NCBI GenBank assembly: GCA_913773715.1
Contig: CAJYHD010000291.1
Coordinates: 1-23,256, forward strand
Length of the DNA stretch: 23,256 bases
Direction: 5' to 3'
Origin: an uncultured Sphingobium sp.
Lineage (GTDB): Bacteria; Pseudomonadota; Alphaproteobacteria; Sphingomonadales; Sphingomonadaceae
The notes beneath the pieces were generated by a model that was not told the DNA's origin, did not search any database, and saw nothing but the letters and a program-made list of their open reading frames with translations. Shown here piece by piece: positions 7,558 to 23,256 of this stretch; the stretch's first letter is position 1; each line of letters opens with the position of its first letter. Both the position numbers and the translations under genes were made by a program.

Positions 7558-8553
7558 ATGAAGGTACTTGTAACCGGCGTCGCCGGCTTCATCGGCTCGA
7601 CATTGGCGCATCGCCTGCTTGATCGCGGTGACAGCGTCGTCGGCATCGACAACATAAACGATTATTATTCCGTTCAGCTCAAGCAAGATCGTCTGGCCAG
7701 GCTCACCGCCCGCGACGGTTTTGCATTCGAGAAGGTCGATTTCGCCGATCACGTCGCGCTCGATGCCGCGCTTGCGGGACATGACTTCGACCGGATTGTC
7801 CACCTCGGGGCACAGGCCGGGGTGCGCTATTCGATCGAACAGCCGCGCGCCTACATCCAGGCAAATCTTGTCGGCCACCTCAATCTCATGGAGGTGGCAC
7901 GGCATCGCCGCAGCGAGCATCTCGTCTATGCGTCGTCCTCATCGGTCTATGGCGGCAACACCAAGCTGCCCTTCTCCGTCGATGACAGGGTCGACCATCC
8001 GATCTCGCTCTATGCCGCCACCAAGAAGGCGGATGAATTGATGAGTGAGACCTACGCTCACCTGTACCGCCTGCCGCAGACCGGTCTGCGCTTCTTCACG
8101 GTTTATGGTCCGTGGGGACGTCCCGACATGGCGATGTGGATCTTCACCAAGGCGATCCTTGAGGGGCGCCCGATCGATGTCTACAATTTCGGCAAGATGC
8201 AGCGTGACTTCACCTACGTCGACGACATCGTGTCGGGCGTGGTCGCATGTCTCGACCATCCCCCGGCCGACAACGGTGCCCCCAAGGCGGGCGGCAGCGT
8301 CGGGCCCCATGCGATCTACAACATCGGCAATCATCGCTCCGAAGAACTCGGGCATATGATCGACCTGATCGAGGAAGCCTGCGGACGCAAGGCGATCCGC
8401 AATCTGATGCCGATGCAGGACGGTGACGTGCCCGCTACTTTTGCCGACATCGAGGCGATCCAGCGTGATCTCGGATTCCAGCCAACCACGGCGATCGCGG
8501 ACGGCGTGCCGCGCTTCGTCAAGTGGTATCGCGACTATCACCAGCTCGGCTGA
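7558..8553 (+). CDS. UDP-uronate 4-epimerase (UDP-glucuronate 4-epimerase family SDR)
   Basis: Extended short-chain dehydrogenase/reductase that inverts C4 of a UDP-uronic acid (UDP-GlcA to UDP-GalA in characterised relatives). 331 residues. Seen: NAD motif GVAGFIG (7-13), DNINDYY (31-37) typical of UDP-glucuronate epimerases, the AQAGVRYSI element (85-93), serines in YASSSSVYG, the Y152-x3-K156 pair, and KMQRDFTYVDDIV. The start is set by GGAGA at 7545-7549, 8 nt upstream. The site directly follows the dehydrogenase stop, so the two are co-translated. Because the partner dehydrogenase looks like a hexosaminuronate enzyme, the real substrate could be UDP-GlcNAcA. Last gene of the + block; it converges on the 2-epimerase gene with a 75-bp gap. 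Confidence 0.9.
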   Translation: MKVLVTGVAGFIGSTLAHRLLDRGDSVVGIDNINDYYSVQLKQDRLARLTARDGFAFEKVDFADHVALDAALAGHDFDRIVHLGAQAGVRYSIEQPRAYIQANLVGHLNLMEVARHRRSEHLVYASSSSVYGGNTKLPFSVDDRVDHPISLYAATKKADELMSETYAHLYRLPQTGLRFFTVYGPWGRPDMAMWIFTKAILEGRPIDVYNFGKMQRDFTYVDDIVSGVVACLDHPPADNGAPKAGGSVGPHAIYNIGNHRSEELGHMIDLIEEACGRKAIRNLMPMQDGDVPATFADIEAIQRDLGFQPTTAIADGVPRFVKWYRDYHQLG

Positions 8554-8628: not shown

Positions 8629-9753
8629 TCAGCCTTCGCGCCACACCGTGCGACGAGCATAGTCGGTGTAGCTGACGATCAGACGGACGACCTTGTCGGA
8701 AACATTGGGTGTGGCGTAATCGTCGACCAGACGCAGCGTTCGGTCGTCGCCCCGCCCCTGTTCAGCCAATATCGACAGGCCTTGCTCGACACGGGCAAGG
8801 TCAAGACCGGTCATCATCACGGCCGCTTCTTCCATGCCTTCGGGGCGTTCGTGTGCCTCCCGTATGTTGAGCGCCGGAAAGTTGAGGATTGATGATTCTT
8901 CGGTGATTGTACCACTATCCGACAGAACCGCCCGTGCCGATTGCTGAAGGCGGACATAATCATGGAACCCCAACGGTTTCATGAGCATGACCTTATCGTG
9001 GAAGCGCATGTCCAGCGCGTCGATCCGCTTTTGCGTTCGCGGATGCGTGGAAACAACCACGGGCATGCCGTGCTGTTCGGCCAGATGGTTCAGGATGCCG
9101 GCAAGGCGCGTGAAATTTCGCTCGGAATCAATATTTTCCTCGCGATGAGCGCTGACGAGATAATATCCTTGCTCGACCAGACCCAATCGGTCGAGCGCGT
9201 CCGATGCATCGATGTGACTCCGGAAATGGTGCAGAATCTCGAACATCGGACTGCCCGTCTTGATGACGCGATCCGGCGGGATCCCCTCGCGCAGCAGCAT
9301 TTCACGCGCGATGTCGCTATAGGTGAGATTGATGTCGGCGATATGATCGACAATGACGCGGTTGATTTCCTCGGGCACGCGTTGATCGAAGCACCGGTTG
9401 CCTGCTTCCATATGGAAGATCGGGATGCGCCGGCGCTTTGCGGGGATCGCTGCCAGCGCGCTATTGGTATCACCTAGGATCAGCACGGCGTCCGGACGGA
9501 ATTCGGCCAGGTGCCGATCCGCGGCCAGGATCACGTTCGCGATGGTTTCCGACGCGGTGCCGCCTGCGGCCTCTAAAAAGACGTCCGGGGTACGGATGCC
9601 CAGATCGTCGAAGAATACCTGGTTCAGGCCATGATCGTAATTCTGACCGGTGTGGACCAGCCGATGATCGCAGAAACGATCGAGTTTCGCGATCGTAAGC
9701 GACAGACGGATGAGTTCGGGACGCGTCCCGACGATCGTAGTGACTTTCAGCAT
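8629..9753 (-). CDS. fnlC: UDP-2-acetamido-2,6-dideoxy-L-hexose 2-epimerase (WbjD/FnlC/WbvD type)
   Basis: Non-hydrolysing 2-epimerase of the WecB superfamily, 374 residues. Within it the sequence matches the WbjD/FnlC/CapG branch: GTRPELIRLS at 9-18 (WecB itself has a different loop), HTGQNYD (34-40), GDTNS (94-98), HMEAGNRCFD (114-123), VPEEINR (126-132), SAHREEN (201-207), and LSDSGTITEESSILNFPALNIRE near 290. Catalytic acids D95, E116 and E128/E129 and H203 are present. It does the last step of UDP-L-FucNAc or UDP-L-QuiNAc synthesis, inverting C2. It starts at ATG after GGGGGAA and lies 15 bp downstream of the RmlD-like reductase. Its 4,6-dehydratase partner is about 8 kb away in block 4. 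A plain UDP-GlcNAc 2-epimerase is less likely given these motifs. Confidence 0.88.
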   Translation of the reverse strand: MLKVTTIVGTRPELIRLSLTIAKLDRFCDHRLVHTGQNYDHGLNQVFFDDLGIRTPDVFLEAAGGTASETIANVILAADRHLAEFRPDAVLILGDTNSALAAIPAKRRRIPIFHMEAGNRCFDQRVPEEINRVIVDHIADINLTYSDIAREMLLREGIPPDRVIKTGSPMFEILHHFRSHIDASDALDRLGLVEQGYYLVSAHREENIDSERNFTRLAGILNHLAEQHGMPVVVSTHPRTQKRIDALDMRFHDKVMLMKPLGFHDYVRLQQSARAVLSDSGTITEESSILNFPALNIREAHERPEGMEEAAVMMTGLDLARVEQGLSILAEQGRGDDRTLRLVDDYATPNVSDKVVRLIVSYTDYARRTVWREG

Positions 9754-9768
9754 CTGGGTTCCCCCGAG

Positions 9769-10623
9769 TTATCCGAACCGGCGCATGTCGGCCACGAGCG
9801 TGGCCCAGTCGGCGGGCGTATAGCCTGTCGCCGTACGAAACCGCGTGGAATCGAGCGACCGGTCGATGACGAGCGCATCGTCTGGTACGATGTCGATGTC
9901 ACGATCATAGGCGGCCGCAAAGAGGCGCAGCAGGCTGTCCTTGTCGATTGCTTGGGTCGAGACATGATAGAGGCCGGACAATTCCGGGCGCGGAAGCACG
10001 AGATCGCGCACCACCCGCGCCAGTTCGACTGTAGGCAGCCCCGAGAAGATCGCCCGGCGGAACCCTCGTACGCTTCCCGACTGTTTCAAGAACCAACCCA
10101 GCAATCCCCGCCCGGAGTTCAGTTCGGGCCCGATGATCGATGTGCGCAACGTGATCGCATGCGGATCGTGGACTTCACCCCATAGCTTGCTGGTGCCGTA
10201 GAGGTCGGTCGCATCCGGCGTGTCGCTTTCGCGATAATTGCCCATGTGCCCAGAAAAGACGCAATCTGTGCTGACATGGACCAGCCGGGCATCCGTCATG
10301 CCACACAGCCGCGCGAGACGATGAGGCAGCAAGGCATTGATCGGTACGGATGTCAGCACCTCAGACGCCGCCGCGAGCTGTTTGACGACGCCGATGCAGT
10401 TGATGACCACGTCCGGCTTGTGGGCGGCGAAGGTGGCGACCAGATTTTCGGTATTCTCTACGTCCAGCCCGCCATGGAATGTCGCCTTGATATCCGGCGG
10501 GAACCATCGCCGCGCATCGTTCGCGCGCGACAATGCTGCGACGTCAAATTGATCATGTTCCGCCAATATCCGTGTCATGGCGCTACCGAGCATGCCGGTC
10601 GCTCCAAGGATCATGATCTTCAC
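9769..10623 (-). CDS. RmlD-like nucleotide-sugar 4-reductase (WbvR-like)
   Basis: Short-chain reductase of the dTDP-4-dehydrorhamnose reductase family, 284 residues. Seen: GATGMLG (7-13), VINCIGVVKQ (73-82), STDCVFSG (118-125) and the Y142-x3-K146 pair. It sits between a WbuB-like transferase and a WbjD-type 2-epimerase, so it is predicted to reduce the 4-keto group of a UDP-2-acetamido-2,6-dideoxy-L-hexosulose. It lacks the C-terminal cupin half of WbjC/CapF/FnlB, the 3-epimerase used for L-FucNAc. That points to WbvR of the UDP-L-QuiNAc pathway. The start is GTG at 10623, overlapping the previous stop as GTGA, with GAGGGAGA 6 nt upstream. ATG 10614 would cut into the first beta strand. An ordinary dTDP-rhamnose reductase is unlikely because no rmlABC genes are near. 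Confidence 0.82.
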   Translation of the reverse strand: MKIMILGATGMLGSAMTRILAEHDQFDVAALSRANDARRWFPPDIKATFHGGLDVENTENLVATFAAHKPDVVINCIGVVKQLAAASEVLTSVPINALLPHRLARLCGMTDARLVHVSTDCVFSGHMGNYRESDTPDATDLYGTSKLWGEVHDPHAITLRTSIIGPELNSGRGLLGWFLKQSGSVRGFRRAIFSGLPTVELARVVRDLVLPRPELSGLYHVSTQAIDKDSLLRLFAAAYDRDIDIVPDDALVIDRSLDSTRFRTATGYTPADWATLVADMRRFG

Positions 10624-11861
10624 CGGGTGTCTCCCTCATCAAAGGCACGCACGACTGCATGCGCCGCCACTTGCGACAATCCTTCCGACAGCCGGGTGGC
10701 GAGCAGGTCGGGGCGATAATGATGATCGAAGTAGCGCCGTCCGGCCCGGCCCAATGCGGCACGTTCTTGGACAGGCAGTGCATGGAGGCGGCGGATCGCA
10801 TCGGCCAGCGCCTGCGGGTCACCGGCAGGGCAGCTGATCCCGCTGCCCGACGCCTCGACGATCTGCGCTGCCTCGCCGCTCACCCCCGCCACGATTGGTA
10901 TGCCGGCGGCCAGATAGGATTGTAGTTTGCTGGGGACAGTGCGGGCCAGCATCGGATCGTCCACCAGCGTCAGCAACAAGGCCGATGCGTCGGCATAGAC
11001 TTGGCGGATTTCCTCCGGCGACACGCGTCCCGGCAGGATCACGTTGCGCAGCCCACGTCGCGCGACGTCCTGAGCAACCCGTTCGGCGTCCGAACCGGAG
11101 CCGTAGAGCATGATCTGCACATCCGGGAGGTCCTGTAGCAGCACGGCCGCAGCGACCACGGTATCCAGCGCCTGGGCTCGACCGAGATTGCCGGCGAACA
11201 CCACCGTAAAATCCGGCCGCTTGGTCATGGGCGAGGCTGACGCTTCTCCAGGCTCTCCCGGATTGGGGAAATAGGCAACCAGGGTTGGCCGGGCCTGGTC
11301 GCGCAATATCTCCACGAACGCGTGCGATTGACCCAGAACCAGATCCGACCAGCGATACATCCTGCGCACCAGTAGATCGACCACTCGAAGCGCAGCTGGA
11401 GAGCGGACGTAGCCGGTGGCCGATAGCGCATGGGGCCAGAGATCCTGGACCCATTGGACAATCGGAGCGCGCTTCAGTCGTCCCAGCCAGACTGCAACGA
11501 AACCTTGGATCGCGGGAGAGGTGCCATAAACGAAGACCACATCAAACGGGCGCCCCCGCAACAACCAGGAGCCGACCACGATCCCGGACACCACGAACGA
11601 GAGGTAATTGAGCACGAGGCGGATCGCGCCGCCCCGCCCACGCGGAACAACCGGCACCCTCACGATATCGTATCCGTCCGGATGCCGTTGTGTCCCCGCG
11701 GCCAAAGCCCGGTATCCGGGATAAACCGCGCCATCGGGATAATTCGGCTGCCCGGTCAACGCCGTGACCTCGACGCCCTGTGCGATCAGATCGGTGATGA
11801 CCTGATTGATCCGGAAGGATTCCGGCCAGAGACACTGACTGACGACAAGGACACGCGGCAT
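10620..11861 (-). CDS. wbuB: GT4 glycosyltransferase, WbuB-like (L-FucNAc/L-QuiNAc transferase candidate)
   Basis: GT-B fold glycosyltransferase acting at the cytoplasmic face. From ATG 11861 it is 413 residues. The N-terminus VVSQCLWPESFRIN (6-19) and LTGQPNYPDG (35-44) are typical of WbuB proteins, as are YGTSP (112-116), VQWVQDLWP (135-143), FAGNLGRAQ (222-230) and PSKLQSYLAAG (310-320), the last replacing the usual glutamate motif of GT4 enzymes. In E. coli O26 wbuB follows fnlA-fnlB-fnlC and is assigned to L-FucNAc transfer. Here it lies directly before the reductase and 2-epimerase of the same pathway and shares a 4-nt overlap with the reductase. Substrate assignment is inference from this linkage. 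The frame is open upstream of 11861, but only this start gives the normal first beta strand. ATG 11894 is an alternative. AAGGGA lies about 12 nt before 11861. Confidence 0.88.
   Translation of the reverse strand: MPRVLVVSQCLWPESFRINQVITDLIAQGVEVTALTGQPNYPDGAVYPGYRALAAGTQRHPDGYDIVRVPVVPRGRGGAIRLVLNYLSFVVSGIVVGSWLLRGRPFDVVFVYGTSPAIQGFVAVWLGRLKRAPIVQWVQDLWPHALSATGYVRSPAALRVVDLLVRRMYRWSDLVLGQSHAFVEILRDQARPTLVAYFPNPGEPGEASASPMTKRPDFTVVFAGNLGRAQALDTVVAAAVLLQDLPDVQIMLYGSGSDAERVAQDVARRGLRNVILPGRVSPEEIRQVYADASALLLTLVDDPMLARTVPSKLQSYLAAGIPIVAGVSGEAAQIVEASGSGISCPAGDPQALADAIRRLHALPVQERAALGRAGRRYFDHHYRPDLLATRLSEGLSQVAAHAVVRAFDEGDTR
10630..10637 (-). promoter_or_regulatory. Ribosome binding site for the GTG start of the reductase
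   Basis: GAGGGAGA on the minus strand ends 6 nt before GTG 10623. It lies inside the last codons of the WbuB-like gene and supports the GTG start and coupled translation. Confidence 0.65.
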
Positions 11862-11919
11862 CGCGGATCGACGTCCCTTCGGGGGCGGAGACATGAATAT
11901 GGTCCGATCTTCCCGGAGC

Positions 11920-11937
11920 GGGCGATCATGATCGCCC
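11920..11937. repeat. Perfect 18-nt palindrome in the wzx-wbuB gap
   Basis: GGGCGATCATGATCGCCC reads the same on both strands. It lies 33 bp after the wzx stop and 58 bp before the wbuB-like start. It can form a 7-bp stem with a 4-nt loop, or be a dimeric-protein operator. No T-run follows on either strand, so a classical terminator is not supported. Confidence 0.6.
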
Positions 11938-11970
11938 TTCCAGCAGTTCCGGCTTCTGGTCAACCTTCGA

Positions 11971-13263
11971 TCAGGGCGTCCCGCCTGGCACCGTCCGCGG
12001 TGGCCGGGTGATAAGCAGGAATACCACAAGCATACCGTAAAGCCACGACACCAGATGGGCGCCGGCCAGTCCGACGGCACCGTGGCGTGGGACCAGGATC
12101 AGCGCTGCCCCCATCAGGATCAAATCCTTCGGTACGGTATAGGCCAGCAAGGATGTCCACATCCGCCGGTCTCCAGCTAGTCGATAGGACCCGATCGTCG
12201 CGACGCTCTCGGCCACGACGGCGCCCATCAGCAGGCGCAATGCGTCTGTGCCCAGCGCAAATCGAGTGCCGAACACCAGCATCAGCCACGGCGCACAGAG
12301 CGCGATAGTGCCGGCCACGGCGATGCTGAAGCCGCCGATCGCCAGCATGATCTGCAGAAGATAGCGGTTGGCATGTGCCGGATCCGCCTCGCTGGCCGCA
12401 ACATAGCGCGGAAGGAAAACCGTGCCGACCTGGACTGGGATGAACACCACCAGCGTCTTGACCATGAACGCGGTCGAGAACAGCCCCAGCTCGTTCAATC
12501 CTCGCGCGTTGACTAGCCAGGCATTGGTCAGCCACACCGCTGGGGTCAGCGTGAGGCCTGCCAGCGCGCTCGGCAGCGCGAAGGGTGCGAGGGTGTGCAG
12601 CAATGCCTTCCAGTCGGAAGGGCGCCGCCACGGGGGGAGGTCGGCGAAGGTGCGACGCAGCAGATGCGATCCATGCACCGCACGTAATGCGGCCGCGGCG
12701 GCATAGCCGATTGCGGCACCGAGGGGGCCGCCCAGAGCTAAGCCGATCGAAACGCCTAGTAGGAGAAAGATCGCATAAGCGATGGCATTCGCGGCGAGCG
12801 ACCGGAACGCCTGCACCCCGATGAGGACGGCGTTCTGCACCAATACCAAGGTCGCAGCCGGAATGCCCGCCCCAGCTACGATGAATAACGGAAGCAGGCT
12901 GGCATTGTCATACAGCCGGCCCGCGATGATGGGCGCTCCAAAGGCAACCACGGCGCCGATGATGGTGCCGGTCATCGCGGCGCTGGAGATACAGAAAGCC
13001 GCGATCCGCTCGGCTCGTGCACGATCCGCGGTAAGATAACGCGCGATGAAATTGGTCGCGGTGAAGGCCAGCCCGAACTGCGCAAGCGCACTCAGCGCCA
13101 GGATGGTGCTCGTAGCCACGGCGAAGCGCCCGAACTGAGCAGGCCCCAACAGGTTGGCCAACCCAATCGTGAGTGCAAGCGTTGCGCCCTGTCCCGTGCC
13201 CGCCGCAATGAGATTCCAGAACAGGGGTCGGGCCCTGTTCCAGCCACGTAGCCAGATACTCAC
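11971..13263 (-). CDS. wzx: Oligosaccharide-unit flippase (Wzx-like, MATE/MOP superfamily)
   Basis: Integral membrane protein, 430 residues from the GTG start, made almost entirely of hydrophobic helices (roughly a dozen to fourteen) separated by short basic loops. The N-terminus (WNLIAAGTGQGATLALTIGL, then LGPAQFGRFA) is typical of polysaccharide-export flippases, which turn the lipid-linked repeat unit across the inner membrane. No catalytic motif is expected in this family. The GTG at 13263 overlaps the stop of the upstream glycosyltransferase as GTGA, arguing for coupled translation; the frame is open upstream to 13311 but those residues ([11 protein letters not shown]) look like read-through of the neighbour. 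It is the only flippase seen in the cluster, so it is taken as the Wzx that partners the polymerase at the right edge. Confidence 0.9.
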   Translation of the reverse strand: MSIWLRGWNRARPLFWNLIAAGTGQGATLALTIGLANLLGPAQFGRFAVATSTILALSALAQFGLAFTATNFIARYLTADRARAERIAAFCISSAAMTGTIIGAVVAFGAPIIAGRLYDNASLLPLFIVAGAGIPAATLVLVQNAVLIGVQAFRSLAANAIAYAIFLLLGVSIGLALGGPLGAAIGYAAAAALRAVHGSHLLRRTFADLPPWRRPSDWKALLHTLAPFALPSALAGLTLTPAVWLTNAWLVNARGLNELGLFSTAFMVKTLVVFIPVQVGTVFLPRYVAASEADPAHANRYLLQIMLAIGGFSIAVAGTIALCAPWLMLVFGTRFALGTDALRLLMGAVVAESVATIGSYRLAGDRRMWTSLLAYTVPKDLILMGAALILVPRHGAVGLAGAHLVSWLYGMLVVFLLITRPPRTVPGGTP

Positions 13264-14333
13264 GCGTTCGCCGCGCCTGTATTTGCGGTCATGGCGTTGC
13301 GCAGCAGCCATTCGAGCTGCTCCATCCGGTAGCCGATACGATGCTCTGCCATCGTGCGGGCGAAGGCGGCGCGGACATGTTCCTCACGCGCGCGTTCGTT
13401 CGTGAGGAAATGGTCAAGTTGAACGATCAGCTCCTCAGTGTTGCGATATCCTTCGATTTCTTTGCCGACCGCATAGAAATCGTTCAGATACTCACCGCCA
13501 TCGGAAATCTGCATCACACCGTTGGCGGGGAGTTCGAACAGGCGGTATCCCCCCACGGTGTAGTCCCCGCGCAGATGGACGTTAAAGCCGATCTTGCTGC
13601 GTCGATACAGTGGAACGTATTCTTCAAAATCAATCGGGCGAACCCATCCTGGTGCGCCGTATTTGTACTTGAAATACAGGTTTTTCTTTGTCGATGCCAA
13701 GCCGTAGAGATGACAGCGCTTGCCAAAGGCGCGCTTGATCGCGGCCAGCATCGGCATCTTGTCAAGGTGAAGTGCCCCGACGAACACGATGTCCCGGTCG
13801 CGTCGCTCGGATAGGAGATCTTCGATCGTCGTGCCGGGGCGCCAGTTGGTGTCGAACAACGCCAGCGGCCAGAAGTCGGCGCGTTTCACCCCGAGATAGG
13901 CAAGCTTGTTCGGCATGTCGATTTCAGGGCTGTATGCCCTTGTGTGATAAAGCACCTGATTGAACGCATGTGCGTAGGTGAAATCGCGATCATAGGCGAT
14001 GGTCGGTCCATCGGACGTGCGCAGAACCTTGTGGATGTTCAACGTGCGCAGGAATTCGGGGTGATAGGGATTGGCGTTGTCGACGACCAGCGCGTCGATG
14101 CGCTCCGCCTCGATCGTCCGGCGTAGCGTATCGTACAGTCCAAGAAGCTGCGGGTCCTTGTCGAACCAGCGATTGTCGAGCGTTTGGCCGCGCAGGTAGT
14201 TGGCGAGAGGATAGAGCATACCGTGATCGAACGGTATGAAACGTACCGAGGTGGATGACGCGGCCGCGATCTCGCGTTCCCAATATGCGCGCTCAAACCC
14301 TCTCTTATTGTGGCTGTAAAGAACGGCAAGCAT
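13260..14333 (-). CDS. CgeB-like glycosyltransferase
   Basis: 357 residues. The C-terminal half carries the glycosyltransferase region of the CgeB/YkvP type: IVFVGALH (182-189), [17 protein letters not shown] (248-264), [13 protein letters not shown] (266-278), then a helix-rich tail with [24 protein letters not shown]. The N-terminal half (first strand LAVLYSHNK, later LVVDNANPY and KVLRTSDGP) fits the acceptor-side Rossmann domain of a GT-B enzyme. It is one of three non-initiating transferases; donor and acceptor are unknown. It starts block 2 and is transcribed away from gmd across a 174-bp divergent gap, so it could share control with the colitose genes; a colitosyltransferase is possible but only a guess. 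The start ATG 14333 begins directly at the first beta strand. Confidence 0.78.
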
Positions 14334-14507: not shown

Positions 14508-15557
14508 ATGAAAAAGGCGCTAGTCACCGGAGTCACCGGCCAAGACGGAGCCTATCTCACCGAGCTGCTGCTCAAAAAAGGGTATGAGGTCCACGGCGTG
14601 AAACGCCGTTCGTCGTCGTTCAACACGGGGCGGATCGACCACCTCTTCCGCGATGTGCACGAGGATCAGGTCCGCTTCTTCCTCCATTATGGCGACATGA
14701 CGGACTCGACCAACCTCATCCGGTTGATCCAGGACGTCTGCCCCGACGAGATTTACAATCTGGCCGCGCAAAGCCATGTCCACGTCAGCTTCGAGACGCC
14801 GGAATATACGGCAAACGCCGATGCGATCGGCACGTTGCGCCTGCTGGAGGCGTTGCGGATCCTGCGCATGGAAGATCGTGTGCGTTTCTATCAGGCATCG
14901 ACGTCGGAGCTCTACGGCCTGGTGCAGGAGACGCCGCAGCGCGAGACGACCCCCTTCTACCCGCGTTCGCCATATGCGGCGGCCAAGCTGTATGCCTATT
15001 GGATCACGGTGAACTATCGTGAGGCCTATGGGATTCACGCCTCGAACGGTATTCTGTTCAATCACGAAAGCCCCATCCGTGGCGAAACTTTCGTCACGCG
15101 CAAGATCACCCGTGCCGTCGCGGCCATCGAACTGGGCAAGCAGCAGGCGCTCTACCTCGGCAATCTCGATGCACGCCGCGACTGGGGACATGCGCGCGAT
15201 TACGTCGAAGGCATGTGGCAGATCGTGCAGCAGGACGCAGGCGACGATTATGTCCTCGCGACCGGCGAGACGCGATCGGTTCGCGAATTTGTGGAATGCG
15301 CCTTTGCCGAGGTCGGACGTACGATCGAATGGTCGGGGACCGGTGTTGATGAGATCGGTCGTGACAAGGACAGCGGAGCCGAGGTCGTTCGGATCGATCC
15401 GCGCTATTTCCGCCCCACCGAAGTGGACCTGCTGATCGGCGACGCAAGCAAGGCGGCCGCCAAGTTCGGGTGGAAGCCCCAGACCGGATTCCATCAGCTG
15501 GTCACCGAGATGGTGCAGGCCGATCTGGCCGAGCTGCGCACGGAGGGATCGCGCTAA
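14508..15557 (+). CDS. gmd: GDP-mannose 4,6-dehydratase
   Basis: Converts GDP-D-mannose to GDP-4-keto-6-deoxy-D-mannose, the branch point to fucose, perosamine, rhamnose and colitose. 349 residues, normal length. Seen: NADP motif [10 protein letters not shown] (8-17), [14 protein letters not shown] (33-46), [12 protein letters not shown] (84-95), STSELYG (131-137) with T132 and E134, SPYAAAK (154-160) with Y156 and K160, and [16 protein letters not shown] (185-200). All catalytic residues are present. ATG 14508 is chosen because it begins the first beta strand; the frame is open upstream but the extra residues are not family-like. It is the first gene of a tight three-gene operon; its stop is 3 bp before colC. 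GDP-mannose itself must come from manB/manC genes outside the window. Confidence 0.97.
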
Positions 15558-15560
15558 TCC

Positions 15561-16496
15561 ATGCGGATATGGATCACCGGTGGGGGCGGCATGCTGGGGG
15601 CCGCGGTGCGGCGTACCGCTCAGGCGCGCGGACGCGACGAGTTGCTGGCGCCGCGTAGTGCGCAACTCGATCTTCGCGATCGTTCGGCCGTCCGCGCTTT
15701 CCTGGCAGGCGAACGGATCGACATGGTGATCCACGCAGCGGCGCGGGTCGGTGGCATTGCCGCCAACATGGCGGACATGAGCGGTTTCCTGACGGACAAT
15801 CTGGAGATCAATCTCAACCTGATCGCGGAATGTGCCACTGCTGGCATACCAAAACTGCTCAACATCGGCAGTTCGTGCATGTATCCAAAGGATTATCGGC
15901 AGCCATTGGTCGAAAGCGATCTGCTGGCTGCCCCTCTGGAGCCGACGAACGAAGGTTATGCGTTGGCCAAGATCGTGGCGGCGCGTCATTGTGACTATTT
16001 GGCGGCGCAGCGCGGCCTGTCGTATCGCACGATCATCCCCTGCAATCTCTACGGTCCGGGGGATAATTTTTCTCCCGCACATGGTCATCTGATCGCCAGC
16101 ATCATTCGCAAGATCGACGAAGCGATGCGTAAGGGTGCCGAGAGCGTCGAGATCTGGGGCGATGGATCGGCACGGCGCGAGTTTCTTTTCACCGAAGATT
16201 TGGCTGAGTGGATCGTCACGCACGCGATCGAGAAGATCGACGCGCTACCGCAATATCTCAACACCGGCTACGGCAGCGATCATTCGGTGCTCGATTATTA
16301 TCGCATCGCGGCCAAGGTGATGGGCTTTACCGGCGAGTTCCGTCACGATCTTGATCGCCCGGTCGGCATGCGACAGAAACTGATCGACTCCCGTCGCGCC
16401 AGCGACTTTGGATGGGCGCCTGCCACCTCGCTCGAGAATGGACTGGCGCAGACGTATCGCTCCTACCTGCAACAGGCGGATGACCTCGTTCAATGA
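15561..16496 (+). CDS. colC: GDP-L-colitose synthase (ColC), GDP-fucose-synthase family
   Basis: 311-residue extended SDR of the GDP-L-fucose synthase (Fcl/GMER) family. Seen: GGGGMLG (7-13), HAAARVGGI (58-66), LNIGSSCMYPK (100-110) with the catalytic serine and C106, the Y133-x3-K137 pair, and CNLYGPGDNF (161-170) followed by histidines 174 and 176. These match the 5-epimerase and 4-reductase centre of Fcl. By sequence alone it could be a GDP-fucose synthase. The next gene, which it overlaps by ATGA, is ColD, so the natural substrate is predicted to be GDP-4-keto-3,6-dideoxy-D-mannose and the product GDP-L-colitose. That order (gmd, reductase, ColD in one operon) is the main argument. Confidence 0.85.
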   Translation: MRIWITGGGGMLGAAVRRTAQARGRDELLAPRSAQLDLRDRSAVRAFLAGERIDMVIHAAARVGGIAANMADMSGFLTDNLEINLNLIAECATAGIPKLLNIGSSCMYPKDYRQPLVESDLLAAPLEPTNEGYALAKIVAARHCDYLAAQRGLSYRTIIPCNLYGPGDNFSPAHGHLIASIIRKIDEAMRKGAESVEIWGDGSARREFLFTEDLAEWIVTHAIEKIDALPQYLNTGYGSDHSVLDYYRIAAKVMGFTGEFRHDLDRPVGMRQKLIDSRRASDFGWAPATSLENGLAQTYRSYLQQADDLVQ

Positions 16497-17671
16497 CCCA
16501 AACCCTTCTTCCGCTCGCTACCGATAGCTGGGACGCGGCCGAATTCGCAGCGATCGATCGCGTCGTCGCGTCCCGGCAGTTTTCGATGAGCCATGAAGTC
16601 GCGGCATTCGAGCGCGATGCCGCGGCGCATTTCGGCACCCGTCACGCCCTGATGGTGAACTCCGGTTCGTCGGCCAACCTCGTGGCGGTTGCCGGGCTCG
16701 TCTATCATCCGGACTCGCTCCTGAAGCCGGGTGACGAGGTACTGGTGCCCGCCGTATCGTGGAGCACCAGTTACTATCCCTTCCACCAGCTCCGCCTAAA
16801 GCTGCGGTTCGTCGACATCGACCCCGATACGCTGAACCTCGATCTCGATCTGCTGGAACAGGCGTTGACCAGCGATACCCGCGCGGTTCTGGCCGTCAAT
16901 CTGCTCGGCAATCCGGTCGATCTGCCGCGGCTCGCGGCATTTTGCGAAGCACATGGATTGATCCTGATCGAGGATAATTGTGAGTCGATGGGCGCGATGA
17001 TCGGCGGGCGCCAGGCGGGCACCTTCGGTCGCTGCGGTACGTTCAGTACGTTCTTTTCCCACCATATTTCGACAATGGAAGGCGGCTTCGTCGTTACCGA
17101 CGATACCCGTCTCCATAACACGATGATCTCGTTGCGCGCACACGGATGGGTCCGTGGGCAGCCCGAGGATTCACATCTGCAAGTGTCCAGCGATCCATTT
17201 GAACGGATGTTTCGCTTCGTGCTGCCGGGCTATAATTTGCGACCGCTGGAGATGTCGGGCGCAATAGGGCAGGAGCAGTTGAAGAAACTGCCGATGATCG
17301 TCGCAGAACGCCGAGCCAACGCAGAACGCTTTGTGACGGCATGCGGCGGCATCCCAGGCATCCGACTACAACAGGAAACCGGCGAGAGTTCGTGGTTCGG
17401 CTTCGCGTTCATCCTAGAGGGACATCTGTCGGATCGCAGAGCCGAGCTCGTCGCCCGACTATCAGCGGCCGGTATTGAATGCCGTCCGGTGGTGGCCGGC
17501 AACTTTACCAAAAATCCCGTCGTGACGTTGCTGGACCACAGCATCGCAGGATCGCTGGACGTCGCCGAGGCCATCGACCGTAACGGTCTTTTCGTGGGCA
17601 ATCATCACTTCCCGATCGGCGATCAGATCGGCCAGCTCGGCGCCATCCTGCAGGATTTTGCCAAGCGTTAA
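16493..17671 (+). CDS. colD: GDP-4-keto-6-deoxy-D-mannose 3-dehydratase (ColD)
   Basis: PLP-dependent 3-dehydratase of the DegT/DnrJ/EryC1 fold, 392 residues. It removes the C3 hydroxyl of GDP-4-keto-6-deoxy-D-mannose using glutamate as amino donor. The decisive feature is FFSHHISTMEGG (187-198): where aminotransferases of this fold carry the PLP-binding lysine, this protein has histidine (H190), as in E. coli ColD H188. Other ColD-like stretches are PAVSWSTSYYP (86-96), NLLGNPVDLP (136-145), EDNCESMGA (160-168), a run containing QETGESSWFGF, then AGIECRPVVAGNF and NGLFVGNH. A perosamine synthase (lysine enzyme) is therefore excluded. ATG 16493 overlaps the colC stop (ATGA). The gene ends at a strong hairpin shared with the convergent fnlA. 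Confidence 0.95.
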   Translation: MTQTLLPLATDSWDAAEFAAIDRVVASRQFSMSHEVAAFERDAAAHFGTRHALMVNSGSSANLVAVAGLVYHPDSLLKPGDEVLVPAVSWSTSYYPFHQLRLKLRFVDIDPDTLNLDLDLLEQALTSDTRAVLAVNLLGNPVDLPRLAAFCEAHGLILIEDNCESMGAMIGGRQAGTFGRCGTFSTFFSHHISTMEGGFVVTDDTRLHNTMISLRAHGWVRGQPEDSHLQVSSDPFERMFRFVLPGYNLRPLEMSGAIGQEQLKKLPMIVAERRANAERFVTACGGIPGIRLQQETGESSWFGFAFILEGHLSDRRAELVARLSAAGIECRPVVAGNFTKNPVVTLLDHSIAGSLDVAEAIDRNGLFVGNHHFPIGDQIGQLGAILQDFAKR

Positions 17672-17676: not shown

Positions 17677-17703
17677 GCGCCGGAAGCATCACGCTTCCGG
17701 CGC
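17677..17703. terminator. Perfect 11-bp hairpin between convergent colD and fnlA
   Basis: GCGCCGGAAGC and its exact complement GCTTCCGGCGC flank a 5-nt loop (ATCAC). The hairpin begins 5 nt after the colD stop and overlaps the last four codons and stop of fnlA, so it can work for both strands. No T-run follows on either side; a bidirectional terminator or mRNA-end stabiliser is inferred. Confidence 0.65.
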
Positions 17704-18723
17704 AGCATCCTTGCCTTGCAAGACGGCCTGCATGAATGGAAGGGTTAGAAGAAGCTCCTTCGTTCCTTCAAGGTCCAACCGCCGCGTGTTGTGAGAGTTG
17801 TAGTCGATGGCTTCCGAGATGCTCGTTTCGCCCTCGACAAAGTACTTCGCATAGTTGAGGTCGCGCAGGTCGGGGGGGATGCGATAATAATCGCCAAGAT
17901 CCTGTGCCGTGGCCATCTCTTCACGGGTCAAAAGCGTCTCGTAGAGCTTCTCGCCGTGGCGCGTTCCAATGACGTTGATCGGATGATCCGTCACGCCCAT
18001 CAGTTCGGCGATGGCGCGTGCCACGGTGCCGACGGTTGATGCAGGTGCCTTCTGGACGAAGATATCGCCGTTGTTGCCATGCTGGAACGCGTAGAGCACC
18101 AACTCAACCGCGTCGTCCAGCGACATCATGAAGCGCGTCATTGCAGGATCGGTGACGGTGATCGGCTGGCCGCTGCGCACCTGATTGACAAACAGCGGGA
18201 TGACCGAGCCGCGCGACGCCATTACGTTGCCGTAGCGGGTGCCGCAGATCATGCCGCCCTGGAGACGCGGCAGACGCGACTTGGCCACCATGACCTTTTC
18301 CATCAACGCCTTCGACATGCCCATCGCGTTGATCGGATACACTGCCTTGTCGGTGCTGAGGCAAATTACCCGCGATACGCCATTGGCTACCGCAGCTTCC
18401 AATACGTTGGCAGTGCCATGAATATTCGTCTGCACGGCCTCCAGCGGGTGGAATTCGCATGAGGGCACTTGCTTGAGTGCCGCGGCATGGAAGATGAAAT
18501 CCACATCCCGTGTCGCGTTGCTGATCGCCACGGGATCGCGGACATCGCCGATGATGAAGCGCAGCTTGTCGCTGCGGTACATCGATCGCATGTCATCCTG
18601 CTTCTTCTCGTCCCGGCTGAAGATACGAATTTCGCCGATGTCGCTGTCGAGGAAGCGGCGCAAGACGGCGCTGCCAAACGATCCGGTGCCACCTGAAATG
18701 AGAAGTGTCTTATCCTTGAACAT
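17689..18723 (-). CDS. fnlA: UDP-GlcNAc 4,6-dehydratase/5-epimerase (FnlA/WbjB/WbvB/CapE type)
   Basis: First step of the UDP-L-FucNAc or UDP-L-QuiNAc route: 4,6-dehydration of UDP-GlcNAc with C5 inversion. 344 residues, the family length. Seen: GGTGSFG (11-17), FSRDEKKQDDMR (35-46), HAAALKQVPSCEFHP (79-93), STDKAVYPINAMGMSK (123-138) with the M134-x3-K138 pair that replaces Y-x3-K in this dehydratase group, RYGNVMASRGS (163-173), MTRFMMSL, IFVQKAPA and the YNSHNTRRL tail typical of WbjB/CapE. The start at 18723 gives the normal N-terminus; a GTG at 18771 would add a proline/serine-rich leader of 16 residues. Its reductase and 2-epimerase partners are in block 2. Last gene of block 4, 78 bp after a glycosyltransferase gene. 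Confidence 0.93.
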   Translation of the reverse strand: MFKDKTLLISGGTGSFGSAVLRRFLDSDIGEIRIFSRDEKKQDDMRSMYRSDKLRFIIGDVRDPVAISNATRDVDFIFHAAALKQVPSCEFHPLEAVQTNIHGTANVLEAAVANGVSRVICLSTDKAVYPINAMGMSKALMEKVMVAKSRLPRLQGGMICGTRYGNVMASRGSVIPLFVNQVRSGQPITVTDPAMTRFMMSLDDAVELVLYAFQHGNNGDIFVQKAPASTVGTVARAIAELMGVTDHPINVIGTRHGEKLYETLLTREEMATAQDLGDYYRIPPDLRDLNYAKYFVEGETSISEAIDYNSHNTRRLDLEGTKELLLTLPFMQAVLQGKDAAPEA

Positions 18724-18743
18724 GATCGACCTATGCAACGAAC

Positions 18744-18768
18744 GGGGGGAAGAAGGAAAGGAAGGAGG
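18744..18768 (+). repeat. 25-nt polypurine tract in the fnlA leader
   Basis: Every base from 18744 to 18768 on the + strand is A or G. On the minus strand this is a pyrimidine-only leader segment about 20 nt upstream of the fnlA start. It could limit RNA structure near the start or sequester purine-rich sites; no function is shown. Confidence 0.5.
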
Positions 18769-18801
18769 CACGGCGTATGATGCGGCGGTAAGAGGCGCCC
18801 A

Positions 18802-19935
18802 TCAGGCTGACGGTCCCTTTACGACTGACAGGATCGCCTCCCATGTTCGCCGGCCGGCATCTTCCCACGTGTAGCGCTCCGATTGTTGCCTAGCGGCTTT
18901 TGCCACCCGGGCACGATGCGCTTCGTCGTCCAGAAGTTTGGTCAGCGCCGCGGCGACCGCCGGAATGTCATAGGGGGCGACATAATCTAGCTCCGGCCCT
19001 CCAAGCTCAGGCATCGGCTGTCGATCCGAGATCAGCATCGGACGACCGACGCGCATCAACTCCAGCATGATATTAGGGCAGTTTTCGCATGCCGACATGA
19101 AGACGTTGAGGGTTGCTCGTTCCGCGAGATCGAAGACCTGATCGTGGCGGATCTCGCCTAACAGGACGACATCATTCTCGAGGCCGTTTCGCTTGATCGC
19201 GTCACGAACGGCATCCGCATAGGCGCCAACGGCCGGGCCGGCCAATACAAGCTTTTCAACGGTAATGCGCTCACGACGCATCAGCGCCCAGGCCTCAACC
19301 AACTCGATTTGTGCCTTGTAGACGTCGAGGATGGACAAATAGAGAACGAAGTGTTCCGGCAGGCGATCGACGAGCACCGGGGCCAGCGTGGCGGTTGTTG
19401 GCGTGACGCCATGCGGAATGACAGCGGCGACACCGCGGCGCTTGACGCGCGCATCAATCACCTCACGTGCGTAATCGGAGATGAAGATTACCAGATCGGC
19501 CTTGCGGAAGGCATGTGACTGGACAAATTTCAACAGCCAGTGACGAAATCGCATCCAGCCAAGCGGATAGCGCCGCGCCGCTTCGAGATCGAAGGGCAAC
19601 ATGTTGCGGAATGCCACAGCCTTTTTGACGCGAGGTGGCAGCCGCATGTCGAAACTGCCACCGGCAAAATATGCCAGATCATAGTCATGGCGGGCTGGCC
19701 ACAGCCATCGGAAGTAGATTGATCCCATCAGAAAACGAGGGATCGGTCGAACCGTCCAGCCCGGCGCGCGCACCCATTCGACATCGGGATGGGATGGCAA
19801 ACCGTCGATGGGCGTCGCAGAAAGAAGCGCGAGATGATGGCCTTGCCCGCTTGGAAACGCCTTAACGACGTGCCGCAGATAGGTGAGGCCGCCGCCCCTG
19901 CGGGCGGACAGGGCACTGAGCAGAATGCGAGCCAC
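18802..19935 (-). CDS. GT4 family glycosyltransferase
   Basis: GT-B enzyme of 377 residues from the GTG start. Seen: an N-terminal donor/acceptor loop SARRGGGLTYLRHV (10-23), FISDYAREVI (151-160), IPHGVTP (173-179), YLSILDVYKAQIELVEAW (199-216) where GT4 proteins keep their hinge strand, and the E-x7-E motif with E284 and E292 in SACENCPNIMLELMRVGRPML. The position of this motif in a full-length domain suggests an active enzyme. The donor is unknown; GDP- or UDP-sugars made in this cluster are candidates. The GTG at 19935 is 2 bp after the asnB stop. An ATG at 19974 inside asnB would add 13 residues without similarity to the fold, so GTG is preferred. Confidence 0.88.
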   Translation of the reverse strand: MARILLSALSARRGGGLTYLRHVVKAFPSGQGHHLALLSATPIDGLPSHPDVEWVRAPGWTVRPIPRFLMGSIYFRWLWPARHDYDLAYFAGGSFDMRLPPRVKKAVAFRNMLPFDLEAARRYPLGWMRFRHWLLKFVQSHAFRKADLVIFISDYAREVIDARVKRRGVAAVIPHGVTPTTATLAPVLVDRLPEHFVLYLSILDVYKAQIELVEAWALMRRERITVEKLVLAGPAVGAYADAVRDAIKRNGLENDVVLLGEIRHDQVFDLAERATLNVFMSACENCPNIMLELMRVGRPMLISDRQPMPELGGPELDYVAPYDIPAVAAALTKLLDDEAHRARVAKAARQQSERYTWEDAGRRTWEAILSVVKGPSA

Positions 19936-19937
19936 GT

Positions 19938-21803
19938 TTATTCGTCCACCGTGATGCCGTAATGACGTCGCCACAACTCCAGCATCGCGATCTGGTAGAC
20001 CGGGTGGGCGAGCCGATCGGCTGCAAGTCCTCCGGCGAGGAACTTGCGCACCATCTCGGCATCCAAAAGACTATTGTCAGCCGAGGCCGCAATGTCCGCC
20101 AGCAGCGGCTTCCATGGACCGCGCAGCCACGCGGGAAGCGGAATGGAGAAGCCTTGCTTGCGGGTGGTGTCGAACCATGCCGGAAGACGACGCTGCGCCA
20201 GTTGCCGCAGCATCAGCTTGCGGCCGATCGGACTGGCCCGTTGTTCGGGGGCAAGTTGGCTGAAGGCAAATTCGATGATCGCGGGATCCAGCAACGGCGC
20301 GCGTACTTCCAATGAGGTCAGCATGCTCGATCTGTCGACCTTCACCAGAATATCGTCACACATGTAGGTGAGATAATCGAGTGCCATCGCGCGCTCGCGC
20401 GGTTCGCGCCAACGCGACACCAGATCAGCGCGGTAATCCTCGGCCGCCTGATACGGCACGCCGTGGTGCCGGCCAATCAAGGCCTGTCGGAGCCCCGGTT
20501 CCATGAGACGGGTGACGGTGATCGCCGGGTCGTGGCGATCGAGCAGCCGCAGGACGGTCTTGCGGGCCTTGAAGCCGTAGGGAAGCATGCGATCGGCAAG
20601 CGAGCGCGCGAGCGGCAGATGCTGTATACCGGCACGGCGGGCCCTCATCATGTTCAGCATCCAGCCGTGATGATGATAGCCGCCGAACAGTTCGTCGCCC
20701 CCATCGCCACCCAGTGCGACGGTCGCGCGGCTCCGTACCAACTGGCTGACCATGAAGGTCGGGATCATCGAGCTGTCGGCGATCGGCTCGTCGAACTGCG
20801 CGGCGAAGCGCGGCAGCAGGTCGAATGAATCCGCCTCCACCATCAATTCGATGTGTTCTGTGCCCAGTTCACCTGCCAGCCGCCGTGCAAGCGGGCTTTC
20901 GTCGAAGGCGGCATGTCCCGGGAAACCAATGGTGAAGGTTGTTACCTTGCCCGATACTTGTGCCGCCGTTGCGGCGATCAGGCTGCTGTCCAGACCGCCG
21001 CTCAGCAGGATGCCGACCGGCACGTCTGCGACTAACTGGCGTTGTACCGAGCGATCAAGCAATCCGCCCAGTTCCTCGCTCAAGTCTTCGAACGAGCGGA
21101 CGGGCGCTGCGGGATCGCGTTGGGGCAGCGTCCAATACGGTTCGACCGTAAGCCGATCGTTCGTCAGGTCGTAGCGCAGGAAATGCGCGGCCGGCAGCTT
21201 GGCGTAACCGGCAAGAAGGCACAGCCCTCGTGGGACATAGCCATAAGCGAGGTAATGATCCAGCGCGACCGGATCGGCGCGGCGCGGCATCGCGGGATGC
21301 TGCAGCAGCATCTTCAGCTCGGAGCCGAACGCCAGCCCGCGATCGGCATGACGATAGAAGAACGGCTTTTCGCCGGCCCGGTCGCGCGCCGCGAACAGTG
21401 TATGCTCGACCTTGTCGTAAATGGCGAAGGCAAACATGCCGGCCAATCGGGGCAGGGCGTCCGCTCCCCAGTGGCGATAGGCCGCGAGCAGGACTTCCGT
21501 ATCGCTCTCGGTCGCGAAATCGTGCCCGGCCGAGCGCAATTCCTCCCGCAGTTCGCGGAAGTTGTAGATCTCACCGTTGAAGGTGATGACATAGCGTCCG
21601 TCGGGCGAATGCATCGGCTGATGCCCGCCCTCACTCAGGTCGATGATCGCAAGACGACGATGGCCAAGCCCTACGCGCCTGTCTTCGGACAGCCACGACC
21701 CCGCGCCATCGGGGCCACGATGCTCGGCTGCGTCGCGCATGGCGTCCAGCAGCGGGGGGGTGATCGGCGTCGTGGCCGAAAGATAGCCGGTAATGCCGCA
21801 CAT
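19938..21803 (-). CDS. asnB: AsnB-type glutamine-dependent amidotransferase
   Basis: Two-domain asparagine synthetase family protein, 621 residues. The N-terminal glutaminase has the nucleophile C2 after Met1, HRGPDG (28-33), HRRLAIIDLS (48-57) and FNGEIYN (75-81). The synthetase domain has the ATP pyrophosphatase loop SGGLDSS (268-274), FDEPIADSS and GGDGGDELFGGY. Both active sites look intact. Within polysaccharide clusters such genes (for example WbpS in P. aeruginosa and WbtH in Francisella) are assigned to converting a uronic acid carboxyl to an amide. The uronate dehydrogenase of this cluster makes the same role plausible, but free asparagine synthesis cannot be excluded. Co-transcribed with the next GT4 gene (2-bp gap). 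It follows a 423-bp stretch without a gene, so it may have its own promoter there. Confidence 0.93.
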   Translation of the reverse strand: MCGITGYLSATTPITPPLLDAMRDAAEHRGPDGAGSWLSEDRRVGLGHRRLAIIDLSEGGHQPMHSPDGRYVITFNGEIYNFRELREELRSAGHDFATESDTEVLLAAYRHWGADALPRLAGMFAFAIYDKVEHTLFAARDRAGEKPFFYRHADRGLAFGSELKMLLQHPAMPRRADPVALDHYLAYGYVPRGLCLLAGYAKLPAAHFLRYDLTNDRLTVEPYWTLPQRDPAAPVRSFEDLSEELGGLLDRSVQRQLVADVPVGILLSGGLDSSLIAATAAQVSGKVTTFTIGFPGHAAFDESPLARRLAGELGTEHIELMVEADSFDLLPRFAAQFDEPIADSSMIPTFMVSQLVRSRATVALGGDGGDELFGGYHHHGWMLNMMRARRAGIQHLPLARSLADRMLPYGFKARKTVLRLLDRHDPAITVTRLMEPGLRQALIGRHHGVPYQAAEDYRADLVSRWREPRERAMALDYLTYMCDDILVKVDRSSMLTSLEVRAPLLDPAIIEFAFSQLAPEQRASPIGRKLMLRQLAQRRLPAWFDTTRKQGFSIPLPAWLRGPWKPLLADIAASADNSLLDAEMVRKFLAGGLAADRLAHPVYQIAMLELWRRHYGITVDE

Positions 21804-22226
21804 CGTCTTATGCCTTCGCCTTGCTGCCGCGTCCGGCGTGGAGGCCCTGTCGGGGCTCTGCGAGTGTCATGGAATAGCTTCGTTCGAAACGATGCCATGC
21901 TGCGGACCTTGTTCGCAGTTGGCGACGGACGAGGGACTGGAGGTCGGTAATTCCCGATCGGTCCCGCTCACATGACTGACTCTTCACGAAAGAAGCAGGC
22001 TCACCTTGTACAAAACACCTTGCCCCCCGGAGGGCGGCGATCTTTACAATCCAGCCTGTCATCGACACGACCCCGGACATGGAATGGATTGCGAGATGCC
22101 CGATGCGATGTCGTCGCTTGGGCGTCAACCGCTTCCACGATGGTGCTGATTGACTTGGCCCGTCATCCGGACGTGGGTCATCATCACGATCCTCACACAG
22201 ATCGGGGCGACGCACTCCCATGCCGC
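21804..22226. other. Intergenic stretch between wzy and asnB with no convincing gene
   Basis: About 423 bp. Open frames of about 100-140 codons exist on both strands but are rich in Arg, Ser and His, have no recognisable domain and no good ribosome site. A short GC inverted repeat (GCCCTCC next to GGGGGGC on the minus strand, about 22021-22035) lies in the middle. TTGACG near 22120 on the minus strand is -35-like but has no good -10. It may hold the asnB leader and promoter, or the remains of a lost gene. Confidence 0.5.
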
Positions 22227-23256
22227 CTAGCGGTCACCGGGTGTCGGCTGAAACGGTGGCGCGATTTCACGATCACCGCGACGTAGCAGGGATGAGAGCA
22301 GCACGCAGAGAAGAATTGCCGGGGCAAGCTGGAAGAAGAAACGTCCGAACAGGGTGAAAGTCGTATCACGAAAACTCTGATACACCGAAATGGCGACCCA
22401 GACATAGATGATGTACGTCCAGATCGAATGGCGTTTCGTCAAAGTGTTCAAAACCCCGCTAAGAACGGCTCCCAAGGCCAGGCCTCGGATCAATGCCGGT
22501 ATGAAGCCTCCGCTCAATGCCGCTTCGGCCAGCATGCCGAACGCAAACCCGCCGCCTTGCGCCGCATATTCCGGATAGAATGTTGTGACATACCAGCTGG
22601 CTGGATCCACTTTCTCGAACGGCAGGATCTGTTGCGGAACCAGCCGCAGCAAGTCACCCAGCAACAAGGTGCCGCTCATGTCGAGCGACGATCCTGCCAG
22701 GTAGATCTGGCGGATATCGAGCGCGGTGACGAAGACAGCCATGAACTCGGACTGCGCGAATACGCCCGAAAGTGAAGTGGTTCCACCACGCAACGAGCCC
22801 AGGATCAGGAACGTGCCGATGATGAACACAAAAAGCAGAAAAATAACCAGTGGCGAGATGCGTTTGTACAAGTGGTCCCAGCAAACGATCACGGAAAAAG
22901 CGATCAGAACAAGCGGTGTACGAGCGCCGGTCACCACGAGAAAAAGAAAAAAGCTCATGACAAGCAATATCGCCAAGGCGCTGAATTTTCTGGCTGTGAA
23001 GTAATAAATCAAAAGGCCGAACAGAGAAACGTAAAACAGATTGTTTAGGATATTGAAGATCTGTATGACAAAGACCGGTAGCGACTGGATCAGGAGATAC
23101 TCGTCGCCATAATCCCCGCCGCCGCCCCCGGCCAGGCGCAATCCTACCTGGACCATGAAGGCCAGCCCGAACATCAGCCACAGGGTGACCATGACATGAG
23201 GGCCGGGCAGTTCGAGTGCTGGCATTCGTGGCGTGCGGATCAATAGATAGGTGGCG
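22227..23256 (-). CDS. wzy: O-antigen/oligosaccharide repeat-unit polymerase (Wzy-like), 5' end off the window
   Basis: 342 residues are visible; the frame stays open through the right edge, so the true start is outside. A TTG near 23243 is inside a continuing hydrophobic reading frame and is not taken as the start. The protein is almost wholly membrane helices with one large soluble loop (roughly the stretch from SLRGG to YPEYAAQGGG), the usual layout of Wzy polymerases, which join repeat units on the periplasmic side. GARTPL at the end of a helix and the later EAALSGG plus FRDTTF near the C-terminal helices are seen often in this loosely conserved family. A run of five glycines (AGGGGGDYGDEY) marks an early loop. 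Identity rests on topology and context; Wzy proteins share little sequence. It is more AT-rich than the neighbouring enzyme genes, as is common for wzy. Confidence 0.8.
   Translation of the reverse strand, partial: ATYLLIRTPRMPALELPGPHVMVTLWLMFGLAFMVQVGLRLAGGGGGDYGDEYLLIQSLPVFVIQIFNILNNLFYVSLFGLLIYYFTARKFSALAILLVMSFFLFLVVTGARTPLVLIAFSVIVCWDHLYKRISPLVIFLLFVFIIGTFLILGSLRGGTTSLSGVFAQSEFMAVFVTALDIRQIYLAGSSLDMSGTLLLGDLLRLVPQQILPFEKVDPASWYVTTFYPEYAAQGGGFAFGMLAEAALSGGFIPALIRGLALGAVLSGVLNTLTKRHSIWTYIIYVWVAISVYQSFRDTTFTLFGRFFFQLAPAILLCVLLSSLLRRGDREIAPPFQPTPGDR

What the first reader, a model, noticed from the sequence alone, without database searches (positions are those of the whole stretch)
14508..17671. 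Complete GDP-L-colitose operon in an alphaproteobacterial surface-polysaccharide cluster
gmd, an Fcl-family reductase and a DegT-fold protein are packed with a 3-bp gap and an ATGA overlap. In the third gene the PLP lysine is replaced by histidine (H190 in FFSHHISTMEGG), the mark of ColD 3-dehydratases. Together they should make GDP-L-colitose from GDP-mannose. Colitose is known mainly from enterobacterial, Vibrio and Yersinia O-antigens; a clean operon in a sphingomonad-like genome would extend that range. Automatic annotation would probably call the genes fucose synthase and aminotransferase and miss this.
Basis: partly seen in the sequence, partly recalled or inferred. Interest (0 to 1): 0.75.

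Follow-up and report, generated by a model that had tools for sequence, protein, structure and literature searches.

The report
Ordinary bacterial colitose sugar operon

Summary
In detail: gmd (14508-15557), colC (15561-16496) and colD (16493-17671), with a 3-bp gap and an ATGA overlap. The third protein is ColD-like: 51% identical to E. coli O111 ColD, H190 aligned with H188 of solved ColD, no E1-type cysteine cluster. The second groups with E. coli ColC, apart from the fucose synthases sampled (100/100), and keeps five Fcl active-site positions. GDP-L-colitose is the best-supported product; no activity was measured.

The claimed extension of range is not supported. Of the best 80 of 192 confirmed ColD loci, 80 have the His, 66 have gmd-colC-colD in that order, and 49 are Alphaproteobacteria. 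Colitose is reported from Colwellia and Herbaspirillum.

A correction: the His plus about 50% ColD identity does not prove colitose. Gmd and ColC next door make the call here. Verdict: new member of a known kind, low interest.

The parts
14508..15557 (+). gmd, GDP-mannose 4,6-dehydratase (the long GTG ORF from 14310 is overcalled)
   Evidence: TIGR01472 602 bits, over its cut-off; 62% identical to E. coli Gmd; best PDB match 7kf3
15561..16496 (+). colC, GDP-L-colitose synthase (5-epimerase / 4-reductase, SDR)
   Evidence: 42% identical to E. coli O111 ColC and 41% to E. coli Fcl; 303 bits against the Fcl cut-off of 500; on the ColC side of the tree at 100/100; S104, C106, Y133, K137, H176 align with Fcl S107, C109, Y136, K140, H179
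16493..17671 (+). colD, GDP-4-keto-6-deoxymannose 3-dehydratase; H190 stands where aminotransferases have the PLP lysine
   Evidence: 51% identical to E. coli O111 ColD; PDB 2gms 427.6 bits, H190 = H188; trees
17689..18771 (-). neighbour, not part of the operon: FnlA-like UDP-GlcNAc 4,6-dehydratase/5-epimerase
   Evidence: TIGR04130 599 bits, below its cut-off of 730
9769..10623 (-). neighbour: RmlD-like reductase, presumably of the same amino-sugar pathway as the FnlA-like gene
   Evidence: PF04321 98 bits; NF047837 (WbjC/FnlB-type reductase) not among its hits
8629..9753 (-). neighbour: WecB-like UDP-GlcNAc 2-epimerase, presumably of the same amino-sugar pathway
   Evidence: TIGR00236 218.6 bits, over its cut-off of 210
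11971..13311 (-). neighbour: Wzx-like flippase
   Evidence: PF01943 57.8 bits
22227..23243 (-). neighbour: Wzy-like repeat-unit polymerase
   Evidence: TIGR04370 48 bits, over its cut-off of 40

Best explanation
The three genes are a standard gmd-colC-colD operon. Gmd turns GDP-mannose into GDP-4-keto-6-deoxymannose. ColD, with PMP and H190 as acid/base, removes the C3 hydroxyl; the enamine is hydrolysed to the 4-keto-3,6-dideoxy sugar plus ammonia, and glutamate regenerates PMP. ColC inverts C5 and reduces C4 to give GDP-L-colitose. A glycosyltransferase of the cluster then adds it to a Wzx/Wzy-type surface polysaccharide. Gene identities, active-site residues and tree positions are shown here. 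The reactions are inferred from characterised homologues. Use of the sugar in the polysaccharide is inferred from gene context.
For: Operon layout. Third protein matches solved ColD with H190 = H188, far above E1 and perosamine synthase. No Cys in the stretch where E1 has its Cys-rich run. ColD on the same side as E. coli O111 ColD of the branch that sets off the thiamine-linked clade (100; 98/91). ColC on the ColC side with E. coli O111 ColC, 100/100 (same side). Same gene order in 66 of the best 80 ColD loci. No thiamine E1 genes in the window by tblastn with the Azospirillum pair. Wzx, Wzy, sugar-phosphate transferase and glycosyltransferases around it. ColD mechanism from passages of PMC8987622.
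Against: No enzyme or polysaccharide data exist for this sequence. By identity ColC is nearly as close to E. coli Fcl (41%) as to E. coli ColC (42%), so the call rests on the tree. In the larger quick tree two SDRs from ColD loci (L003, L072) fall on the Fcl side, so an Fcl-type enzyme can apparently sit in such an operon; those two rows were not in the careful tree. Within ColD the window lies in a subgroup (98/95) apart from the one that holds E. coli ColD (89/92), and with the E1 root, which carries a long-branch warning, the order of these two and the thiamine-linked clade is unresolved.
Confidence: 0.93

Rival explanations
1. The operon makes GDP-L-fucose (gmd plus Fcl) and the DegT gene is an aminotransferase such as perosamine synthase.
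For: Names given by annotation pipelines; the SDR is 41% identical to E. coli Fcl; two SDRs from other ColD loci group with Fcl.
Against: The DegT protein has His in place of the PLP lysine and matches ColD at 428 bits against 114 for perosamine synthase. The window's SDR lies on the ColC side and below the Fcl cut-off.
Confidence: 0.03
2. The DegT protein is a 3-dehydratase of another pathway: E1/RfbH type on CDP sugars, or the thiamine-linked branched-sugar type.
For: Both share the His; NCBIfam's best-scoring model for it is RfbH; it is 50% identical to the Azospirillum ColD-like protein.
Against: RfbH scores 235 bits, below its cut-off of 423. The E1 Cys-rich run is absent. Gmd next door points to GDP sugars. 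No thiamine E1 genes in the window. Unrooted trees separate it from the thiamine-linked clade.
Confidence: 0.03

Closest known systems
E. coli O111 gmd / colC / colD (O-antigen cluster, NC_013364)
   Same: All three enzymes, the aligned catalytic residues, and a colC-colD overlap of 4 bases
   Different: In O111 gmd is separated from colC by a GDP-sugar hydrolase, a mannose-1-phosphate guanylyltransferase and a phosphomannomutase gene; the window has all three together. Identities are 61, 42 and 51%.
gmd-colC-colD operons of Roseovarius, Litoreibacter, Chelatococcus, Gellertiella, Pandoraea and others
   Same: Same three genes in the same order in 66 of 80 loci
   Different: ColD of the 80 loci is 51-62% identical to the window's; the wider polysaccharide genes were not compared
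   Same: About 50% identical to the window's ColD, with His at position 190
   Different: Near an E1-alpha/beta pair and mostly another SDR, with no gmd in view; set apart by an unrooted branch

Membership tests
ColD (GDP-4-keto-6-deoxymannose 3-dehydratase) | His in place of the PLP lysine at position 188 | tested here: met
   H190 aligns with H188
ColD (GDP-4-keto-6-deoxymannose 3-dehydratase) | No [2Fe-2S] cysteine motif (present in E1 and SpnQ; passages of PMC8987622) | tested here: met
   No Cys where E1 3bcx has its Cys-rich run; Cys only at 151, 163, 181, 284, 330
ColD (GDP-4-keto-6-deoxymannose 3-dehydratase) | Groups with characterised ColD | tested here: met
   Unrooted: the window and E. 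coli O111 ColD are on one side, the six thiamine-linked rows on the other (100; 98/91). The window is in its own subgroup, and the rooted order is unresolved.
ColD (GDP-4-keto-6-deoxymannose 3-dehydratase) | Activity with PMP and glutamate | not testable with these tools
   Needs an enzyme assay
ColC (GDP-L-colitose synthase) | Groups with E. coli ColC apart from Fcl | tested here: met
   100/100 in 34 rows with 8 Fcl; same side in 44 rows, where two other ColD-locus SDRs fall with Fcl
ColC (GDP-L-colitose synthase) | Epimerase and reductase residues of the Fcl/ColC kind | tested here: met
   S104, C106, Y133, K137, H176; the catalytic roles are recalled from work on E. coli Fcl
Fcl (GDP-L-fucose synthase) | Score above NCBIfam NF047922 cut-off (500 bits) | tested here: not met
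   302.7 bits
RfbH / E1 | Score above NF011936 cut-off (423 bits) | tested here: not met
   235.2 bits
Gmd | Score above TIGR01472 cut-off (415 bits) | tested here: met
   602.1 bits

The most novel reading that the evidence does not exclude
The cluster makes a not yet described surface polysaccharide that joins L-colitose with a UDP-L-FucNAc or L-QuiNAc type sugar and an amidated hexosaminuronic acid. It would be the first colitose polymer shown in a sphingomonad-like bacterium.
Probability: 0.35. Interest if true: 0.25.

Novelty: new member of a known kind. Interest (0 to 1): 0.12.

Why it matters
It is a clean example of a pathway that annotation hides under 'fucose synthase' and 'aminotransferase', so colitose is probably under-counted in environmental bacteria. 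The useful lesson is a caution: the active-site His and about 50% identity to ColD do not by themselves mean colitose, because a second clade keeps both and sits in a different gene context. ColC and gmd next door are what make the call safe here.

Tried and rejected
Perosamine/GDP-fucose and RfbH/E1 readings were tested and rejected. The idea that the operon is new to Alphaproteobacteria was rejected. No fold prediction was made, because a relative with a solved structure is known and the E. coli O111 protein is 51% identical.

In print: searches for colitose with alphaproteobacteria, Sphingomonas, Paracoccus, Herbaspirillum, and biosynthesis + marine gave 3, 1, 1, 2 and 8 papers, with overlaps. 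I saw passages of PMC7725333 (plus part 1 of 3 of its results), PMC3210612, PMC8614823, PMC8914368 and PMC8204192. I did not open PMC12731072, PMC9391130, PMC4052302 or PMC12409901. The passages show no colitose polymer from an alphaproteobacterium. The library lacks most subscription journals, so this is weak. Searches were swamped by unrelated papers.

Limits of the counts. The 80 loci are the best of 192 confirmed, and their lean to Alphaproteobacteria partly reflects the query. In the class sample 23 of 289 genomes match ColD at E 1e-90. One of the 23 (G001) is the genome that defined the class and was known to have it, and one match (G158) is reported with a stop inside. The 23 are not a count of colitose operons. 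Of the 8 of 23 loci laid down, 2 have ColC beside ColD (L095, L096). Of the other 6, in wider pieces, 5 have the E1-alpha/beta pair and 1 (L116) has gmd about 4 kb away plus a 33% SDR. Trees used part of the rows: 42 of 94 and 44 of 93; 34 rows, without L003 and L072; 32 rows. L036 was asked for but had been left out because its match held a stop.

Full report
Observation. One search read the sequence directly. gmd runs 14508-15557, three bases (TCC) follow, colC runs 15561-16496, and colD runs 16493-17671 with an ATGA overlap. The proteins are 349, 311 and 392 aa. The motif FFSHHISTMEGG starts at residue 187 and its first His is residue 190.

ColD. The best solved relatives are four ColD sequences in the PDB (up to 427.6 bits), then two E1 sequences of the CDP pathway (156.7 and 152.6), a putative 3-dehydratase 9wvy (125.6) and perosamine synthase (114.2). 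The alignments show wild-type ColD with HH, one variant with NH and two with KH at this motif, so H190 corresponds to H188. Passages of PMC8987622 state that the Lys-to-His change is shared by ColD, E1 and SpnQ, and that E1 and SpnQ but not ColD carry a four-cysteine [2Fe-2S] motif. The window protein has no cysteine where E1 has its Cys-rich run (Cys list). RfbH is NCBIfam's top model for it, but at 235 bits it is below the cut-off of 423.

ColC. By identity alone the second gene is undecided: 42% to E. coli O111 ColC and 41% to E. coli Fcl. The tree decides. In a careful tree of 34 rows, 19 SDRs from ColD loci (E. coli O111 included) and 8 fucose synthases (E. coli Fcl and seven from plasmids) form two sides at 100/100, and the window sits on the ColC side. 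Of the seven plasmid genes, four have gmd next to them (L103, L106, L107, L108); their role as fucose synthases rests on annotation and on no ColD being matched in the stretch fetched. A quick tree of 44 rows gave the same split, except that two SDRs from ColD loci (L003, L072) fell with the fucose synthases. Those two were not in the careful tree. The five residues aligned with Fcl 107, 109, 136, 140 and 179 are kept; their catalytic roles are recalled, not from a call.

Range. ColD was searched in one genome per species of GTDB 220: 192 stretches were confirmed and the best 80 kept. All 80 have His at position 190, as do all 120 proteins listed out of 8000 scored. In 66 of 80 the order is gmd-colC-colD on one strand with colC within 300 bp. 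In 7 gmd and colC lie elsewhere in the locus. In 5 colC is adjacent with no gmd upstream on the same strand in view (4 without any gmd match in the held DNA; L017 has one on the opposite strand). In 2 no colC is in view. By record title, 49 of 80 are Alphaproteobacteria (39 Rhodobacterales, 9 Hyphomicrobiales, 1 Hyphomonadales), 13 Betaproteobacteria and 5 Gammaproteobacteria, with others in Bdellovibrionota, Melainabacteria, Armatimonadota, Actinomycetota, Bacteroidota and Methanobacteriota. None of the 80 is labelled as a sphingomonad. Of 13 plasmid records with a ColD-like protein, 9 are not Azospirillum (Paracoccus 5, and one each of Sulfitobacter, Phaeobacter, Chelatococcus and Parasedimentitalea), and in 8 of those 9 a ColC relative lies directly beside it (positions).

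In print. A survey of 12,939 genomes infers that the L-fucose and L-colitose pathways were lost in the TACK archaea (PMC7725333, passage). Its text does not name colitose among the common or less common sugars, which would put it in the rare group, at most 10% of genomes (part of the results). That is in line with 23 of 289 here as an upper limit. So the pathway is widespread but patchy, not common. Colitose is found chemically in Colwellia LOS (PMC8914368, passages), and a title in the reference list of PMC8614823 reports it in the O-polysaccharide of Herbaspirillum frisingense. The gene set is thus already present in many alphaproteobacterial genomes, although I saw no paper that shows colitose chemically in one.

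Context. Around the operon are an FnlA-like dehydratase (17689-18771), a WecB-like epimerase (8629-9753) and an RmlD-like reductase (9769-10623), which together suggest a UDP-L-FucNAc or UDP-L-QuiNAc pathway. The reductase does not hit the FnlB/WbjC model, which leans to the L-QuiNAc kind; that link is recalled knowledge. There are also TviB/TviC-like genes (6156-8553), an asparagine-synthase-like amidotransferase (19938-21803), Wzx, Wzy, glycosyltransferases and an initiating sugar-phosphate transferase. The operon's GC content is 0.603, against 0.612 for 8629-14333 and 0.599 for 17689-23243, so composition gives no sign of recent import.

A correction. ColD-like proteins about 50% identical to the window's, with the same His, form a second clade. 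Seven of the 8 also have an SDR like that of Azospirillum. None has gmd in view, and two (L114, L115) also have a ColC-like SDR (Pfam of the Azospirillum genes). None of the 80 colitose-type loci has either E1 gene in the DNA held, nor has the window. PMC12247030 (passages) describes E1-type enzymes that add two-carbon branches to keto sugars, mainly in antibiotic clusters. A branched 3,6-dideoxy sugar is the obvious guess. So His plus ColD likeness is not enough, and in this window it is gmd and ColC beside it that make colitose the right call. The window's ColD forms its own subgroup with Paracoccus and an Armatimonadota relative, whose loci have gmd and colC; its order relative to the E. 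coli subgroup and the thiamine-linked clade is not resolved when rooted on E1.

Verdict. Its novelty claim is not. New member of a known kind, interest 0.12.

Noticed in passing
L111-L115, L117-L119: A ColD-like clade with the catalytic His sits near a PDH-type E1-alpha/beta pair (8 of 8 loci), usually with an SDR (7 of 8); none of 80 colitose-type loci has the pair. It probably makes a C4-branched dideoxy sugar; PMC12247030 describes the enzyme type mainly for antibiotic clusters.
   Followed up: partly
window 8629-10623 (-) and 17689-18771 (-): WecB-like, RmlD-like and FnlA-like genes, split by other cluster genes, suggest a UDP-L-FucNAc or UDP-L-QuiNAc pathway.
   Followed up: partly
window 19938-21803 (-): Asparagine-synthase-like amidotransferase (XrtA/PEP-CTERM model below its cut-off, 494 of 817 bits) in a polysaccharide cluster; may amidate a uronic acid made by the TviB/TviC-like pair at 6156-8553.
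   Followed up: no
window 2-4594 (-): An open frame of at least 1531 aa, cut by the window edge, with a signal-peptide-like start and repetitive Gly/Thr/Asn-rich sequence; no Pfam match. Looks like an autotransporter or adhesin.
   Followed up: no
L003, L072: The SDR beside ColD groups with fucose synthases rather than ColC in the quick tree: possible replacement of ColC by an Fcl-type enzyme.
   Followed up: no
L001, L002, L004, L005, L007, L011, L013: Another gene order, colD-gmd with colC 1.4-1.8 kb further on, in seven Paracoccus loci; the two tested (L001, L002) have ColD near the window's in the tree.
   Followed up: no
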